Of a stretch of 52,266 bases of DNA, positions 17,533 to 52,266 are shown piece after piece (the first letter of the stretch is position 1; the number at the start of each line of letters is the position of its first letter). Both the position numbers and the translations under genes were made by a program. This DNA is from Gammaproteobacteria bacterium (GTDB lineage: Bacteria > Pseudomonadota > Gammaproteobacteria > Steroidobacterales > GCA-2729495): NCBI GenBank assembly GCA_021773815.1, contig JAJFJS010000056.1:1-52266 (forward strand), given 5' to 3'. The notes under the pieces were generated by a model, which searched no databases, had not been told where the DNA came from, and worked only from the letters and a program-made list of their open reading frames with translations.

Positions 17533-18873
17533 ATGAACTTGACAATACACGGATCCGGGTACGTCGGCCTGGTCACGGGCGCCTGTATGGCCGACGCCGG
17601 CAATCACGTCATCTGCGTCGATATCGACGCGGACAAGATCGCCCGGCTGCAGGCCGGAGATATACCGATTCACGAGCCCGGGCTCGAGGACCTGGTGCGC
17701 CGTAACGCGGCCGCCGGCCGGCTGACGTTTACGACCGATATCGACCGGGGTGTCCGCGAGGGACTGTTCCAGTTCATCGCGGTCGGCACGCCGCCCGACG
17801 AAGACGGTTCGGCGGACTTGCAATATGTACTCGCAGTCGCGCGCTCGATCGGCGAGCACATGGACGATTACAAGGTCGTCGTCGACAAGTCGACGGTACC
17901 GGTCGGTACTGCGCTGCGGGTGCGGGACGTCGTTGCCGAGACGCTGGCGGCGCGTGAGGCCGTGATCGAGTTCGACGTCGTTTCCAACCCGGAGTTTCTG
18001 AAAGAGGGCGCCGCGATCGGCGATTTCCTGAAGCCGGATCGCATCATCGTCGGCACCGACAGCGAGCGCGCCGCGCAGCACATCAAGGCGCTGTACAAGC
18101 CCTTCAGTCGCAACCACGACAAGCTGATCCTGATGGATATCCCGTCGGCGGAGCTGACCAAGTATGCGGCCAATGCGATGCTGGCCACGAAGATCAGTTT
18201 CATGAACGAGCTGTCGAATATCGCCGATCTTTATGGCGCCGACATCGAGCAGGTCCGGGTCGGAATCGGTTCGGATCCGCGCATCGGTTACGAGTTCATC
18301 TACCCCGGGATCGGCTACGGGGGATCGTGTTTCCCGAAGGATGTGACGGCGCTCGCACATTCTGCGGGTCTGGCCGGTTACGACGCGGAGCTGGTCCGGG
18401 CCGTCGAACGCGTCAATACGCGGCAGAAAACCATTTTGGGCCGGAAGATCATTGCGCATTTCGGCGGCGATCTGGCGGGCAAGACCATCGCGCTGTGGGG
18501 ACTGGCGTTCAAGCCCCGGACCGATGACATGCGCGAGGCGCCCAGCCGCGTGCTAATGGAGCAGGTCTGGGCCGCCGGCGGCCAGGTGCGTGCTTTTGAC
18601 CCCGAGGCGATGGATGAGACACACCGCATCTTCGGCGACCGCGAAGGCCTGACGCTATGCGAGTCGGCGGTCGCAGCCCTGCAGGGCGCCAACGCGCTGG
18701 CGGTCGTGACGGAGTGGCAGGAGTTCCGCAGCCCGGATTTTGCCAGCCTGCGGCAGAATCTGGCGGAGCCGACCGTATTCGACGGTCGCAATATCTATGA
18801 TCCGGAGACAATGGCCGAGCAGGGATTCACGTACTACTCGATCGGGCGCGCGGCCCGCGGGCGGCCATCATGA
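17533..18873 (+). CDS. ugd: UDP-glucose 6-dehydrogenase
   Basis: A 446-residue NAD-dependent dehydrogenase making UDP-glucuronate. It has the N-terminal [15 protein letters not shown] (7-21), [10 protein letters not shown], the hinge region, and [10 protein letters not shown] with the catalytic cysteine at 266. The C-terminal domain shows [16 protein letters not shown]. The overall pattern is that of Ugd and not of the WbpA/WecC group that oxidises UDP-GlcNAc or UDP-ManNAc. It is followed by ManC after 45 bases. A 172-base gap precedes it, with no clear terminator or promoter. Glucuronate would be a component of the exopolysaccharide. Confidence 0.93.
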
Positions 18874-48387: not shown

Positions 48388-48530
48388 AAATAAAGTTGGG
48401 GATCAACCATCCGGTTTGGGTTTTCCGGGGCGCGACCATGGTCTATGGCGCGCTTGACGTAACGAAGCGTGCGTCGATGGATGCTTAACATAGTGTGAAT
48501 CACGCTTCAATGGTCAGTACCGACGTGGAT

Positions 48531-48546
48531 TGTGATCGATGTCACA
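48531..48546. promoter_or_regulatory. CRP/Vfr/Clp-type binding palindrome
   Basis: TGTGATCGATGTCACA matches the CRP-family consensus TGTGA, six bases, TCACA at every consensus position. Its centre lies about 60 bases before the start expected from the extended -10 element at 48583-48591, the spacing of class I activation. A shorter palindrome, GTGAATCAC, lies 30 bases upstream. Which CRP-family protein binds (cAMP-responsive, or c-di-GMP-responsive like Clp) cannot be told. Confidence 0.7.
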
Positions 48547-48582
48547 GATTGCGGATATCGCGATTCAATTCCATGGAGGGAG

Positions 48583-48591
48583 TGATATTGT
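48583..48591 (+). promoter_or_regulatory. Extended -10 element ahead of the riboswitch
   Basis: TGATATTGT fits the extended -10 form TG, one base, TATTGT, four of six matching TATAAT. Transcription would start near 48598, at the beginning of the riboswitch aptamer, and no good -35 box is seen, consistent with activation from the CRP-type site. Confidence 0.45.
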
Positions 48592-48595
48592 GCGC

Positions 48596-48680
48596 GCCGT
48601 ACAAAGCCAAACTCATCGAAAGGTGAGGACGGAAAGCCACCGGTCTAACGGGATGTATTCCTACGACAGCGGGGTTGCCA
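48596..48680 (+). promoter_or_regulatory. GEMM-I (cyclic di-GMP class I) riboswitch aptamer
   Basis: The aptamer shows the GEMM core in order: CCAAAC, a CTCATC/GGTGAG stem capped by a GAAA tetraloop, GGACGGAAAGCC, CCGGTCTAA, and GACAGCGGGGTTGCC. These match the conserved segments of the Vibrio Vc2 aptamer, including the tetraloop and its receptor side. The family binds c-di-GMP, and a sub-group (GEMM-Ib) binds 3',3'-cGAMP. The deciding base (position 20 of Vc2) cannot be placed surely because one extra C lies before AAAC. It sits on the strand of, and about 150 bases before, the secreted-protein start. Confidence 0.88.
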
Positions 48681-48730
48681 TATGAGCTACCACCAACGCC
48701 GACGTGGTTCGTCGCCGTTAACCGCGCTTT

Positions 48731-48822
48731 CCCCCTCCCTGGGTGAATTACCCGACTTCCGTCGGGTCGTCTCCTCGACGAGTTTGCTGACTTTGGCGAT
48801 TAGCGAAACATCGAGAGAGGGA
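48731..48822 (+). promoter_or_regulatory. Candidate riboswitch expression platform
   Basis: Between aptamer and start codon are a C-rich tract (CCCCCTCCCT, 48731-48740), a 7-base hairpin ACCCGAC/GTCGGGT (48750-48767) and the Shine-Dalgarno GAGAGAGGGA (48813-48822). TCCCT could pair with AGGGA and hide the ribosome-binding site. No T-tract follows the hairpin, so translational control fits better than termination. This is inferred from complementarity, not folding calculations. Confidence 0.4.
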
Positions 48823-48828
48823 CATCAG

Positions 48829-51800
48829 ATGTTACTAGGCGAAAAGCGAGTTTTGCGGCTACAACGGATTGTGGGTCGCATGTCCGCGGGGCTGGGTATC
48901 GGTGGTGCGCATATCGCAGTTGCTGTTCTCGGTGTCTATCTGGGAATCAACCCGGCCATGGCGCAATCTTCCGGACCGTCATGGGTGTATGACATTGGCC
49001 CGGGCACGTGGGGCGCGATCAGTCGCAACACGCTGTCCGATGTGGATCCCGAAGACGATCCTTCGGCAAATCCGAATTACCCAAGCAGTGCGCCGTGGCA
49101 CGGATCGACGGGTCAGCGTTCCGTGATCATCGACTGGAACGGCGGCGCCTACGCACAGAACTTCGGCAGCTTCGGTTCGCTGTTGCTGACCGGCGGCGGC
49201 CATGCCGCCTACCAGGGTAATGAGGTCTACGCGTTCGATCTCGATACCCGACTCTGGACGCGGGTCAACGATCCCTATACCGGGTCGTACAGCAACTCGT
49301 CAAACGGTGCTTACTCGGACGGGTCTCCGCTGACCGTGCATACGATGGATGCACTCAGCTACCACCCGGCGACCAAGTCCATCGTGCGCCTGAAGGGGAC
49401 GACCGATTCCTATGCGGGTAACGGCCAGATCGTGGTCGCCTTTATGCTCGATCTTGAAACGAAGGCCTGGCGACGCAGTCGCGTCAACCCGGTCGAAATC
49501 ATCACGAGCGGCATTTCCTGTTACGACACGAATCGCGATGTGTTCTGGTTCCAGAATCAGGCGTCGGCGAACTGGAAATTCCAGAAGTACGATCCGAACG
49601 GTTCCAACGGTGACGGCACGGTCGGTACCTGGACCAACTACCCGGCCAGCTATATCAACTCCGACGGCGCCGGCGCCTGTGATCCGGTCAACGATGTCTT
49701 CGTTTATACGCAGTTCCGCAGCGATACGCCCGATTACATGCGCGGCGTGTACGTCAGAGATCTGTCCAACCCGTCGGCGCCGGCCGTGCAGATTTCGCCG
49801 CAGGGCACTTCGCCGGAATCCGGCGAGAGCGGCGCACACGGCTGGGAGTGGTCGAACAAGCGACAGGCCTTTATCTTCTGGCGACGCGGCGGCGGCGTAC
49901 ATGAATTACGACTGGTCAGCGGTTCGCCGCAAACGGGCACCTGGCGCTGGACACAGTTGACCAGCGGGTCGAACTCGGTCGTGCCGCAGAGCATGGCTCT
50001 CGATCGCGGTGTTTACAGTCGTTTCCAGATCGCGACGCTCGGCGATGAGGAAGTCGGCGTCGTCGTCAACCGCGAAGACGGTCCGGTGTATGCGTTCCGG
50101 ATACCGGATGCGGACAACGTGACGCCTTCTCTGCAGGTCTCTGTGTCGGCATCGCCCAGTTCGGTCACCTCCGGGCAGACATCGACGCTGACCTGGTCGG
50201 TCCCGGGTGCGACTTCGTGTGCGGCGTCCGGCGGCTGGAGCGGAACGAAGTCGGGGAGTGGCAGTCAGGTCGTCGGACCGCTGAGTGCATCGGCGACGTT
50301 CACGCTTGATTGTTCGAACGGTTCCGGGTCGACCGGACGTGGCTCGGCCAGCATTACGGTCGGCAGCGCTCCGCAGCCCAACCGCGCGCCGACGATTTCT
50401 GGCTCACCGGCAGCGACAGTCGTCGCCGGCGACTATTACCGGTTTGCGCCGACGTCTGGCGACGCAGATGACGATAACCTGACGTTTTCGATCGTCAACA
50501 AGCCGTCCTGGGCGAGTTTCAGCACCAGCACCGGTGAACTGGACGGTACGCCGGGAAACGGCGATGTCGGCACGACCAGCAATGTGCGCATTACGGTCTC
50601 GGACGGCGCCGTTCAGACGTCGCTGTCGGCATTTAGTGTTACGGTCGTCGCCGCGGCGACCGGCGGCGGCACAATCAGCTGGCTGCCACCGCTGCTCAAC
50701 GCCGACGGCAGTGCGTTGACCGACCTGGCGGGCTATAAGATCCATTACGGGTCGAGTTCGCGGAACTATGACACGACCATCCTTATCAATTACGGCGGCG
50801 TAACGAACTATCTGGTCGAAAACCTGGTGCCGGGCACGTACTACTTTGCCGTGACGAGCTTTGATGCCGCGGGTAACGAAAGCGTTTATTCGGCAGAGGT
50901 CGTCGGCGTGATCGGCACCGCCGTGACGGAGCCGCCGGTCACGCAGCCGCCGGTCACGCAGCCGCCGGTAACGCAGCCGCCGACGACGGAATCGCCCTCG
51001 ACGGGTGAAGCCGCGGTCGCCGGTACCGAAGAATCGTTGGGCTCGGGTGGCGCGGCCGCCGGCCTCGCGGAAATTCTCTGGCTGCTGATGATTGCCCTGG
51101 CGCGTGGTATCGTCGGACGGCGTTCGCACGGTCCCGCGCAAGGCAAGCGCGCGCAGTTTCGTTCACCCAGGGAGGGGTTTCGTATGCCAACCAGGTTCTC
51201 GATACTGCAATCGACGGGTATTCTTGTCGCGGTTTCGCTGGCGGCCACCGGCTGGGCCGGCGCCGCTGACTTCCAGACGCGCTGCGCCGGCGCGGGCGTC
51301 GTCAAGTGCGTCGGTTTCGATTCGAGCTCTGACATACCCCACAACAGCGTGCTCAGGCCGGCGAGTGACGGTGCGTTTCGCGGCACCATCGACGCCTCGA
51401 TCCGGGCATCGGGCAACGGCTCGCTGCGTTTCGAAGTGCCGTCGAATTCCGACGCCAATGCGTCCGGATCGTATTTGGACAGCCTCGGCGGTTCGTTCGG
51501 CCAGAACAGCAAGTTCTATGTGCAGTTCCGGCAGCGCTTCTCGGATGCGATGGTGAACACGAATTTCGCGCCCGGCAGCGGCTGGAAGCAGGTGATTTTC
51601 CACGCGTACAACAAGTCCTGCGGCAGCGTCGAACTGACGACGCAGAATATTTACCTGCGTGGTTTTCCGCAGATGTACACCGATTGCGGTGGTCGCTCGC
51701 TGCAGACGAATCTCGGCAACGGCGATGCCCTGCTCCAGCAGGGAGACTATGACTGCCACTATCAGAGCCAGAACGGTTCGGATTGCGGCTGGTATGTCGC

Positions 51801-52170
51801 CGACGAATGGATCACGTTCTATTACGAGATCGAGATCGGCAACTGGTATCAGCCCAACAGCAATATTCGCGCCTACATGGCCTATGAGGGTCAGCCGCTC
51901 AAGCAGTTCATCGATATCCGGAACTTCGCGCTGAGCTACAACAACAGCTCATCCGATTCGTACCAGCAGATTCAGCTGACCACGTATCACACCAACAAGG
52001 ATTCGTCGCAGAGTCACCCGACGGCCTATGTCTGGTATGACGAACTGATCGTCTCGACGCAGCCGATCGCGCCGGCGGACGGATCGATCCCGCCGCAGGC
52101 GCCGCCGCCGCCGCAGGCCGATACGACGGCGCCGGCTGCGCCGACGTCCGTCGAGTTCCTGGCCGACTAG
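48829..52170 (+). CDS. Secreted kelch/Ig/FN3 protein fused in frame to a lectin- or lyase-fold protein
   Basis: The ATG at 48829 is chosen because GAGAGAGGGA precedes it and a signal peptide (to AMA-QSS, about residue 45) follows; the frame is open further upstream into the riboswitch. The 1,113-residue product has a kelch-like beta-propeller region (about 51-430, with LLTGGGHAAYQGNEVYAFD), an Ig-like domain (431-512), a He_PIG/cadherin-like domain (518-608), an FN3 domain (613-698), a TQPPV repeat linker, and a Gly-rich hydrophobic Arg-ended tail (about 733-765). At residue 786 an internal Met with GGGAGGGG upstream begins a second signal peptide and a jelly-roll lectin/polysaccharide-lyase-like domain. 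It may be two genes joined by loss of a stop. Functions are probably carbohydrate binding or matrix structure. Confidence 0.75.
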   Translation: MLLGEKRVLRLQRIVGRMSAGLGIGGAHIAVAVLGVYLGINPAMAQSSGPSWVYDIGPGTWGAISRNTLSDVDPEDDPSANPNYPSSAPWHGSTGQRSVIIDWNGGAYAQNFGSFGSLLLTGGGHAAYQGNEVYAFDLDTRLWTRVNDPYTGSYSNSSNGAYSDGSPLTVHTMDALSYHPATKSIVRLKGTTDSYAGNGQIVVAFMLDLETKAWRRSRVNPVEIITSGISCYDTNRDVFWFQNQASANWKFQKYDPNGSNGDGTVGTWTNYPASYINSDGAGACDPVNDVFVYTQFRSDTPDYMRGVYVRDLSNPSAPAVQISPQGTSPESGESGAHGWEWSNKRQAFIFWRRGGGVHELRLVSGSPQTGTWRWTQLTSGSNSVVPQSMALDRGVYSRFQIATLGDEEVGVVVNREDGPVYAFRIPDADNVTPSLQVSVSASPSSVTSGQTSTLTWSVPGATSCAASGGWSGTKSGSGSQVVGPLSASATFTLDCSNGSGSTGRGSASITVGSAPQPNRAPTISGSPAATVVAGDYYRFAPTSGDADDDNLTFSIVNKPSWASFSTSTGELDGTPGNGDVGTTSNVRITVSDGAVQTSLSAFSVTVVAAATGGGTISWLPPLLNADGSALTDLAGYKIHYGSSSRNYDTTILINYGGVTNYLVENLVPGTYYFAVTSFDAAGNESVYSAEVVGVIGTAVTEPPVTQPPVTQPPVTQPPTTESPSTGEAAVAGTEESLGSGGAAAGLAEILWLLMIALARGIVGRRSHGPAQGKRAQFRSPREGFRMPTRFSILQSTGILVAVSLAATGWAGAADFQTRCAGAGVVKCVGFDSSSDIPHNSVLRPASDGAFRGTIDASIRASGNGSLRFEVPSNSDANASGSYLDSLGGSFGQNSKFYVQFRQRFSDAMVNTNFAPGSGWKQVIFHAYNKSCGSVELTTQNIYLRGFPQMYTDCGGRSLQTNLGNGDALLQQGDYDCHYQSQNGSDCGWYVADEWITFYYEIEIGNWYQPNSNIRAYMAYEGQPLKQFIDIRNFALSYNNSSSDSYQQIQLTTYHTNKDSSQSHPTAYVWYDELIVSTQPIAPADGSIPPQAPPPPQADTTAPAAPTSVEFLAD
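50931..50987 (+). repeat. Tandem 15-base coding repeat (TQPPV units)
   Basis: The coding strand repeats CCGCCGGTCACGCAG with small changes, giving PPVTQ units as a linker between the FN3 domain and the hydrophobic tail. Such linkers vary in copy number among strains. Confidence 0.75.
51184..52170 (+). CDS. Internal in-frame gene start: secreted concanavalin A-like/polysaccharide-lyase-fold protein
   Basis: A 328-residue protein could be made independently. The ATG at 51184 has GGGAGGGG 6 bases upstream, and the product starts MPTRFSILQSTGILVAVSLA, a good signal peptide ending near WAGAADF. The domain contains KCVGFDSSSD, SGNGSLRFEVPS, FYVQFRQRF, GWKQVIFHAYN, EWITFYYEIEIGNW and TAYVWYDELIVSTQPI, the strand pattern of jelly-roll lectins and some polysaccharide lyases. 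Catalytic residues cannot be assigned. The C-terminus is Pro-rich and stops in the middle of a TAPAAPTSVEF linker that often leads to another domain, so it may be shortened. Confidence 0.55.
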   Translation: MPTRFSILQSTGILVAVSLAATGWAGAADFQTRCAGAGVVKCVGFDSSSDIPHNSVLRPASDGAFRGTIDASIRASGNGSLRFEVPSNSDANASGSYLDSLGGSFGQNSKFYVQFRQRFSDAMVNTNFAPGSGWKQVIFHAYNKSCGSVELTTQNIYLRGFPQMYTDCGGRSLQTNLGNGDALLQQGDYDCHYQSQNGSDCGWYVADEWITFYYEIEIGNWYQPNSNIRAYMAYEGQPLKQFIDIRNFALSYNNSSSDSYQQIQLTTYHTNKDSSQSHPTAYVWYDELIVSTQPIAPADGSIPPQAPPPPQADTTAPAAPTSVEFLAD

Positions 52171-52176
52171 GCCACA

Positions 52177-52224
52177 GGTCAGGCCCGCGCCCGGACGAGA
52201 GTACTTGTTCCGGGCGCGCTGACC
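52177..52224 (+). terminator. Long GC-rich stem-loop after the secreted-protein gene
   Basis: CGCGCCCGGA (52186-52195) pairs with TCCGGGCGCG (52209-52218), and GGTCAG (52177-52182) pairs with CTGACC (52219-52224) as an outer stem. It starts 6 bases after the stop. There is no T-tract. A further copy of the left arm (GGTCAGCGCGCGCCCGG) appears at 52243-52259. Confidence 0.55.
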
Positions 52225-52266
52225 GGGGGCCGCCACGGCACTGGTCAGCGCGCGCCCGGCACCCCG

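What the first reader, a model, noticed from the sequence alone, without database searches (positions are those of the whole stretch)
48829..52170. Two exported proteins joined in one reading frame, with an internal sorting-like tail and a second signal peptide
Residues 733-765 form a Gly-rich, hydrophobic, Arg-ended segment like a C-terminal sorting signal (GlyGly-CTERM-like), yet the frame continues. About 20 residues later come a ribosome-binding site, a Met and a complete signal peptide. The CAA codon at 51139-51141 is one substitution from TAA, so a lost stop is a simple explanation. The alternative is one polypeptide crossing the membrane twice, or internal re-initiation from 51184. Either way the arrangement is unusual and places two matrix proteins under one riboswitch.
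Basis: partly seen in the sequence, partly recalled or inferred. Interest (0 to 1): 0.65.

Follow-up and report, generated by a model that had tools for sequence, protein, structure and literature searches.

The report
Two secreted-protein genes sharing one frame
Two neighbouring bacterial genes for secreted proteins, probably acting on the cell's own slime coat and switched together by the signal molecule c-di-GMP, have run into one reading frame with both export signals still in place, so the cell either makes them from two start sites or makes one long chain that would have to be cut in two.

Summary
One open frame (48829-52170, 1113 aa) reads through a Gly-rich/hydrophobic/Arg tail (residues 738-765), a basic loop, then a GGAGG ribosome-binding site, ATG 51184 and a second signal peptide. 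The first half is a kelch propeller with Ig, He_PIG and fn3 domains; the second has a polyuronate-lyase fold. A c-di-GMP-I riboswitch lies 146 nt before 48829. Relatives show both alternatives: adjacent genes (twice in one frame across stops), or one chain with one signal peptide. None of 15 fused frames scanned has an internal tail plus second signal peptide. The window's lyase half is as close to its relatives as they are to each other; its kelch half is much more diverged. Best reading: two adjacent genes whose separating stop is missing. Without it, ribosomes from 48829 must make a polyprotein whose topology would still export both domains. The genome has a rhombosortase, but the tail fails the GlyGly-CTERM model and is not C-terminal. 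CAA 51139 is one of six codons one change from a stop. Side finding: a c-di-GMP-I-type riboswitch precedes 11 of 11 fused genes in the 20 regions I chose.

The parts
48596..48682 (+). c-di-GMP-I riboswitch aptamer
   Evidence: RF01051, 82.8 bits, gathering 35; 92.3 bits with model R1, whose alignment includes it
48829..51183 (+). first gene-like half: exported kelch protein with Ig, He_PIG, fn3, Pro-rich linker and C-terminal-type tail
   Evidence: Pfam He_PIG 30.9 bits over its cut-off 24, fn3 19.5 below its cut-off 25, kelch models weak; AlphaFold2 model of residues 47-430 pLDDT 82.6, best PDB match LZTR1 kelch domain E 5.4e-9
48829..48966 (+). first signal peptide (residues 1-46, ends AMA|Q; cleavage site inferred)
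   Evidence: hydropathy windows within 18-47; cleavage site read by eye, no SignalP run
50902..51039 (+). Pro/Thr-rich linker with VTQPP repeats and the following acidic/Ser stretch
   Evidence: sequence
51040..51123 (+). sorting-signal-like tail, residues 738-765
   Evidence: only such pattern in 64,180 six-frame residues; no curated sorting model matches
51124..51183 (+). joint without a stop codon, residues 766-785; basic loop
   Evidence: 6 of 20 codons one change from a stop; residues 764-789 hold 8 K/R against 1 acidic
51171..51175 (+). Shine-Dalgarno GGAGG, 8 nt before ATG 51184
51184..52170 (+). second gene-like half: signal peptide plus polyuronate-lyase-fold domain, 328 aa
   Evidence: relatives as separate signal-peptide-bearing genes (signals by eye and hydropathy); AlphaFold2 pLDDT 95.3; glucuronan lyase 2zzj Z 18.7, 2.9 A over 211 residues
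51184..51267 (+). second signal peptide (residues 786-813, about AGA|AD; cleavage site inferred)
   Evidence: hydropathy windows within 790-815; cleavage site read by eye

Best explanation
This is a two-gene unit under one c-di-GMP-I riboswitch: gene 1 exports a kelch/Ig/fn3 protein with a membrane-anchoring sorting-like tail, and gene 2 exports a polyuronate-lyase-fold protein. The stop codon that would end gene 1 is missing, so the two share a frame. Gene 2 keeps its own ribosome-binding site, start (51184) and signal peptide, and is most likely also made by initiation there (inferred). Ribosomes that start at 48829 have no stop before 52168 and must make a 1113-residue chain (follows from the sequence if the assembly is right). 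The tail would cross the membrane from outside to inside, the basic loop (8 K/R against 1 acidic) stay inside, and the second signal peptide cross back, so both domains end up outside. Signal peptidase would cut before the lyase domain, and rhombosortase might cut at the tail (both inferred). Function: c-di-GMP-controlled remodelling of the exopolysaccharide, perhaps uronic-acid-containing, made by the neighbouring XrtA/PEP-CTERM-type cluster (inferred).
For: Open frame with both signals intact. Separate neighbouring genes in relatives: L054, L055 and L058 with gaps of 8-10 nt; L093 kelch-TGA-36 nt-ATG in the same frame; L085 He_PIG/fn3-TGA-72 nt-ATG in the same frame (a second in-frame stop in between). 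L085/L086 carry the riboswitch upstream (for the same contigs as L044/L045). Of 27 lyase-domain frames scanned for hydropathy, 15 are fused to kelch: all 15 have the N-terminal signal, 7 of the 12 whose C-terminus is held have a hydrophobic C-terminal tail, and none has an internal tail plus signal peptide; a few weak internal peaks lie in Ig repeats of L094 and L096. The two halves have different histories: window lyase domain 54% and 58% identical to L053 and L056 (55% to each other), window kelch 31% to both (46% to each other), which fits joining of separate parts. Rhombosortase in the genome, 142 bits, cut-off 84. Exopolysaccharide neighbours: TIGR03007, 03016, 03027, 03019 and 03100 over cut-off; nucleotide-sugar dehydrogenase over its subfamily cut-off, TuaD-like but below that model's cut-off, at 17533-18870.
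Against: No close relative with the same arrangement plus a stop was found: the three same-genus genomes, 73-80% complete, lack the lyase domain, so the ancestral stop cannot be placed. The window tail fails the GlyGly-CTERM model, and the tails of the two nearest relatives do too. The kelch tree joins two long branches (window and L093), so the kelch history is less sure. Fused one-chain forms are common (11 of 22 frames), so a chain is evidently tolerated or useful. A lyase fold is not proof of lyase activity. The frame ends 96 nt from the contig end and only one assembly was seen.
Confidence: 0.68

Rival explanations
1. A genuine single polypeptide, by selection: the frame is kept open because a tethered kelch-lyase chain is useful, as in the fused relatives; the second signal peptide works only as an internal membrane segment or is vestigial.
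For: 11 of 22 lyase-domain frames in 20 chosen regions are fused to kelch, and 13 of 53 tree rows; the 15 fused frames scanned have an N-terminal signal only, besides tails. The fused label needs 8 changes on the lyase tree, at least 7 forced by well-supported branches, so joining is favoured or easy.
Against: In the fused relatives no membrane segment lies between the two parts; Ig or other linkers do. The window keeps a Shine-Dalgarno and ATG exactly at the signal peptide. The two halves have different histories.
Confidence: 0.14
2. Assembly or consensus error: a stop or a frameshift is present in the real genome and was lost in this draft genome.
For: 149-contig draft genome; the joint lies about 1.1 kb from a contig end; single-base errors can hide a stop; 6 of 20 codons are one change from a stop.
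Against: The sequence codes for two intact halves. In the part scanned (51000-51260) the +1 frame has stops only at 51086 and 51089 and the +2 frame only at 51006, all before the joint, so one base lost or gained just after the tail would not by itself expose a nearby stop.
Confidence: 0.12
3. Fission in progress: an ancestral fused kelch-lyase chain gained a tail and a signal peptide in the middle.
For: The closest lyase-domain relatives include fused chains (L056, L053).
Against: Needs two gains and a changed linker; window kelch is far more diverged from L053/L056 than they are from each other; the He_PIG/fn3 part resembles separate proteins such as L085.
Confidence: 0.06

Closest known systems
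GlyGly-CTERM / rhombosortase sorting system (TIGR03501 / TIGR03902)
   Same: Tripartite tail on an exported protein; rhombosortase in the genome over cut-off; 4 of 7 tails of relatives over the GlyGly-CTERM cut-off.
   Different: Window tail matches no curated sorting model and is followed by 348 residues. Passages of PMC3237569 say known members have zero to five residues past the end of the helix, and no TM helix between signal peptide and tail.
Polyuronate lyases with the jelly-roll fold (glucuronan lyase 2zzj, PL-14 alginate lyase 5gmt, alginate lyase Aly36B 6kcw; family numbers other than PL-14 are recalled)
   Same: Fold over 208-214 residues, Z 14.7-18.7; one Lys and one Tyr among five columns invariant in 45 relatives.
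   Different: 11-14% identity; no PDB sequence match at E up to 1; Pfam Polysacc_lyase in 6 of 20 members only, best 2e-4, not the window; activity untested. Non-lyases with this fold (Cip1 Z 17.2, GH131 Z 16.6, lectins) score nearly as high.
Fused kelch-Ig-lyase genes under c-di-GMP-I riboswitches in related Gammaproteobacteria (L053, L056, L084, L092 and others)
   Same: Same riboswitch class, same two domains, same order.
   Different: One signal peptide, Ig linkers, no internal tail plus signal peptide; in L053, L056 and L092 the tail is near the true C-terminus, in L084 about 37 residues before it.
Cytochrome b/c1 precursor FbcH of Bradyrhizobium japonicum (recalled; the searches did not show it)
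   Same: Recalled as a bacterial polyprotein split at an internal signal peptide by signal peptidase.
   Different: There the two parts are respiratory-complex subunits; here two secreted proteins with an additional sorting-type tail.

Membership tests
GlyGly-CTERM protein (TIGR03501) | matches the curated 22-position model at 15.5 bits | tested here: not met
   no match for the window tail; a scan of the whole own genome gave one place only, elsewhere, 15.7 bits
GlyGly-CTERM protein (TIGR03501) | tail at the extreme C-terminus (0-5 residues after it) | tested here: not met
   frame goes on for 348 residues; criterion from passages of PMC3237569. Would be nearly met if a stop lay at 51124 or shortly after
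GlyGly-CTERM protein (TIGR03501) | N-terminal signal peptide and no other TM segment between it and the tail | tested here: met
   hydropathy scan; no dedicated predictor
GlyGly-CTERM protein (TIGR03501) | genome encodes rhombosortase | tested here: met
   G000:C13:6879-7328, 142.1 bits, cut-off 84; 14 of 14 control genomes ring below the cut-off, 0 over it
c-di-GMP-I riboswitch (RF01051) | covariance-model score over gathering threshold | tested here: met
   82.8 vs 35 bits
c-di-GMP-I riboswitch (RF01051) | binds c-di-GMP and controls the gene | not testable with these tools
   needs in-line probing or a reporter
Polysaccharide lyase of the glucuronan/alginate-lyase fold group | jelly-roll lyase fold | tested here: met
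   Z 18.7 to 2zzj, 16.9 to 5gmt; non-lyases share the fold
Polysaccharide lyase of the glucuronan/alginate-lyase fold group | sequence model of the family (Pfam Polysacc_lyase) | tested here: inconclusive
   window no match; 6 of 20 relatives weakly, best 2e-4; one of four further members at 14.7 bits, cut-off 29.9
Polysaccharide lyase of the glucuronan/alginate-lyase fold group | catalytic residues superpose and uronide is cleaved | not testable with these tools
   no residue-level structural alignment is returned; no assay
Kelch beta-propeller | propeller fold with kelch motifs | tested here: met
   model pLDDT 82.6 matches kelch domains; Pfam kelch models are weak and below cut-off for the window; over cut-off in relatives: three in L053, four in L054, one in L092, none in L056

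The most novel reading that the evidence does not exclude
A natural bacterial self-separating polyprotein: an outward-to-inward sorting tail, a positively charged cytosolic loop and an inward-to-outward signal peptide form a membrane hairpin between two secreted domains, so that rhombosortase and signal peptidase release the same two mature proteins that separate genes would give. It would allow loss of a stop codon at little cost, show that a rhombosortase-type signal can work internally, and tie two exopolysaccharide-acting proteins at a fixed 1:1 ratio under one c-di-GMP riboswitch.
Probability: 0.3. Interest if true: 0.6.

Novelty: new variant of a known kind. Interest (0 to 1): 0.42.

Why it matters
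It catches a repeatedly made gene fusion or fission (fused label at least 7 changes on the lyase tree) in a state where both export signals survive, so it can be asked whether a sorting signal thought to need the extreme C-terminus works inside a protein. The wider set links c-di-GMP-I-type riboswitches to a kelch / polyuronate-lyase-fold pair in Gammaproteobacteria. Four full-text searches of the held library found 0 papers: 'c-di-GMP riboswitch' + kelch + exopolysaccharide, 'c-di-GMP-I' + riboswitch + kelch, 'c-di-GMP riboswitch' + 'polysaccharide lyase', 'cyclic di-GMP' + riboswitch + kelch; papers outside that library were not seen. If the second protein acts on the cell's own exopolysaccharide, the same signal that usually promotes matrix production (recalled) would also control its trimming.

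Tried and rejected
The stop at 51139 as THE lost stop: not proven, six candidates. A frameshift hidden just after the tail: in 51000-51260 the +1 and +2 frames have no stop after 51089. A search of the genome collection with the second half alone: 19 stretches matched a pattern, none encoded a relative; with alignment A1 it found 49 loci. Sequence search of the PDB: none for the lyase-domain alignment or the kelch part. No special RNA structure at the joint: z -0.50. Riboswitch leader fold: z -2.62, expression platform not resolved, so ON or OFF is unknown. One promoter-like site in 48400-52266, on the minus strand, as many as chance; none before 51184. A precedent for internal signal peptides in bacteria was searched without success. 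Three papers that name the GGC riboswitch class were listed and not read. Families not listed by fold searches are not excluded.

Rows chosen or dropped: (99 genomes, the own one included) printed a capped list of matches, from which I chose 20 regions. One search left out lyase-domain hits under 200 aa and added one unnamed locus (53 rows). One search kept kelch hits of 250-520 aa and added one unnamed locus (20 rows). One search was given 45 sequences: the window and 44 of the 51 references printed. One search was given the window and 17 of the 18 references printed. One search scanned 27 frames that I picked. In one search, 5 of 34 unfused, non-neighbouring rows had under 300 nt upstream and showed no riboswitch.
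Full report
What is there. The frame 48829-52170 is open for 1113 residues. It starts 146 nt after a c-di-GMP-I riboswitch (48596-48682, 82.8 bits). In order it holds a signal peptide, a kelch propeller (about residues 47-430; model pLDDT 82.6, best PDB matches kelch domains), an Ig-like repeat (found by likeness to repeats in relatives), He_PIG (over the Pfam cut-off) and fn3 (below it), a Pro-rich linker, a Gly-rich/hydrophobic/Arg tail (738-765), a basic loop, a Shine-Dalgarno and ATG 51184 with a second signal peptide, and a domain of about 270 residues with a very confident model (pLDDT 95.3). That domain has the fold of polyuronate lyases (glucuronan lyase 2zzj Z 18.7, 2.9 A, 211 residues; alginate lyase 5gmt Z 16.9). 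Proteins that are not lyases share the fold and score nearly as high (Cip1 17.2, GH131 16.6), so fold does not prove activity. One Lys and one Tyr are among only five columns invariant in 45 relatives, which would suit a lyase (inference).

More than chance? The tail pattern occurs once in 64,180 six-frame residues of the window, and 51184 is the only in-frame ATG with a GGAGG-type site among 42 possible starts, two GTG codons also scoring. The absence of a stop in the short joint is not remarkable by itself (about 0.53 for 21 random codons). Of 20 codons in the joint, 6 are one change from a stop, so the proposed CAA is one candidate of several.

Relatives, first set. A search of 99 genomes, the own one included, gave matches from which I chose 20 regions. 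They hold 22 lyase-domain frames: 11 fused in one frame behind a kelch part and 11 not. Rfam finds a c-di-GMP-I or c-di-GMP-I-GGC aptamer just before 11 of 11 fused frames and before the operons of 2 of 11 others, the near-identical L044/L045. L038 and L039 are near-copies too.

Relatives, second set. A profile search of named genomes gave 49 loci, by their titles mostly metagenome-assembled genomes, among them Gammaproteobacteria, Nitrospira, Burkholderiales and Acidobacteria. With a model built from 13 aptamers of the first set and the window (so not independent of them), the riboswitch is found before 8 of 12 fused frames, 0 of 5 neighbouring-gene cases and 5 of 34 others; 5 of those 34 had under 300 nt upstream. 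The 4 fused frames without it are two in a Nitrospira genome and two near-copies in one Acidobacteria genome. In 40 genomes of the window's family the lyase domain occurs in 14, in 396 of the order in 24, the own genome counted.

Two genes or one? Both states exist. L054, L055 and L058 have kelch and lyase as neighbouring genes 8-10 nt apart. L093 has kelch, TGA, 36 nt, ATG in the same frame. L085 has He_PIG/fn3, TGA, 72 nt, ATG in the same frame, with a second stop in between. I scanned 27 frames for hydrophobic stretches; 15 are fused to kelch. All 15 have an N-terminal signal. Of the 12 whose C-terminus is held, 7 have a hydrophobic C-terminal tail (in L084 about 37 residues before the end) and 5 do not (L050, L059 twice, L077, L100). 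L094 and L096 have further weak peaks in Ig repeats, and L057 and L081 elsewhere. No frame has an internal tail plus signal peptide. On the lyase tree the window sits with L056 and L052 (97/87), and the fused label needs 8 changes, at least 7 forced by well-supported branches. The window's lyase domain is as close to L053 and L056 (54% and 58%) as these are to each other (55%), but its kelch part is only 31% identical to theirs, against 46% between them. The kelch tree puts it with L093, both on long branches, so that place is unsure. I read this as separate parts brought together, with the stop between them missing.

The tail. It matches no curated sorting model. Of 7 tails of relatives given by reference, 4 pass the GlyGly-CTERM cut-off (L092, L088, L090, L043) and 3 do not (L051, and L053 and L056, the nearest relatives). 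The genome has a rhombosortase over cut-off; this model also gives hits below the cut-off in all 14 control genomes. The GlyGly-CTERM model rings in one place only of the own genome. Another protein of the genome (L002) ends in a similar tail followed by 17 residues. Passages of PMC3237569 state that known members have zero to five residues past the helix and that the extreme C-terminal place may matter for recognition. So this is a sorting-like tail, but not a member of GlyGly-CTERM by test.

How it probably works. If the sequence is right, ribosomes from 48829 cannot stop before 52168, so a long chain is made whenever gene 1 is translated. The tail, the loop with 8 K/R against 1 acidic residue and the second signal peptide form a membrane hairpin that leaves both domains outside. 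Signal peptidase can release the lyase domain, and rhombosortase might release the kelch part. Independent starts at 51184 would add free lyase. These last steps are inferred. The neighbourhood is an XrtA/PEP-CTERM-type exopolysaccharide cluster with a nucleotide-sugar dehydrogenase (TIGR03026 over its cut-off; TuaD-like, below that model's cut-off), which suggests a uronic-acid-bearing polymer as substrate (inference).

Papers. Seen: search listings (several gave 0 papers), passages of PMC3237569, abstract and outline of PMC13393428. FbcH of Bradyrhizobium is recalled; searches did not show it.

Noticed in passing
window 48596-48682 and L032, L033, L038, L039, L041, L043, L046, L048-L051: c-di-GMP-I or GGC-type riboswitch just before 11 of 11 fused kelch/lyase-fold genes in the chosen regions; the searches showed no paper on such a link.
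   Followed up: partly
window 3-45664: Large XrtA/PEP-CTERM-type exopolysaccharide cluster (TIGR03007, 03016, 03027, 03019, 03100 over cut-off), with nucleotide-sugar dehydrogenase and mannose-1-phosphate guanylyltransferase genes.
   Followed up: partly
L053, L052/L056: Two genomes carry a fused and a solo lyase-domain copy about 1 and 8 kb apart; in each the two copies are sisters on the tree (100/99), so solo and fused forms arose from each other at least twice, or were homogenised.
   Followed up: partly
L034/L035, L044, L050, L058, L059, L073; window about 52117-52167: Several kelch and lyase proteins end in a peptide like the first strand of an fn3 domain (about PP-x-x-V-x-V, by eye), the window's too; meaning unknown.
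   Followed up: no
L110-L115: Six further c-di-GMP-I riboswitches in the genome, among others before a PilM-like gene, a TonB/ExbB-like cluster and proteins with VPxPA-type tails (gene names by eye).
   Followed up: no
L002 (G000:C68): A parallel-beta-helix-like exported protein (by eye) with an Ig repeat 41% identical to the window's and a Gly/Ser-hydrophobic-Arg tail followed by 17 residues.
   Followed up: no
L093 5713-5752: Kelch and lyase genes in the same frame separated by a single TGA and 36 nt in a genome deposited as Deltaproteobacteria; the nearest picture of a state before joining.
   Followed up: partly
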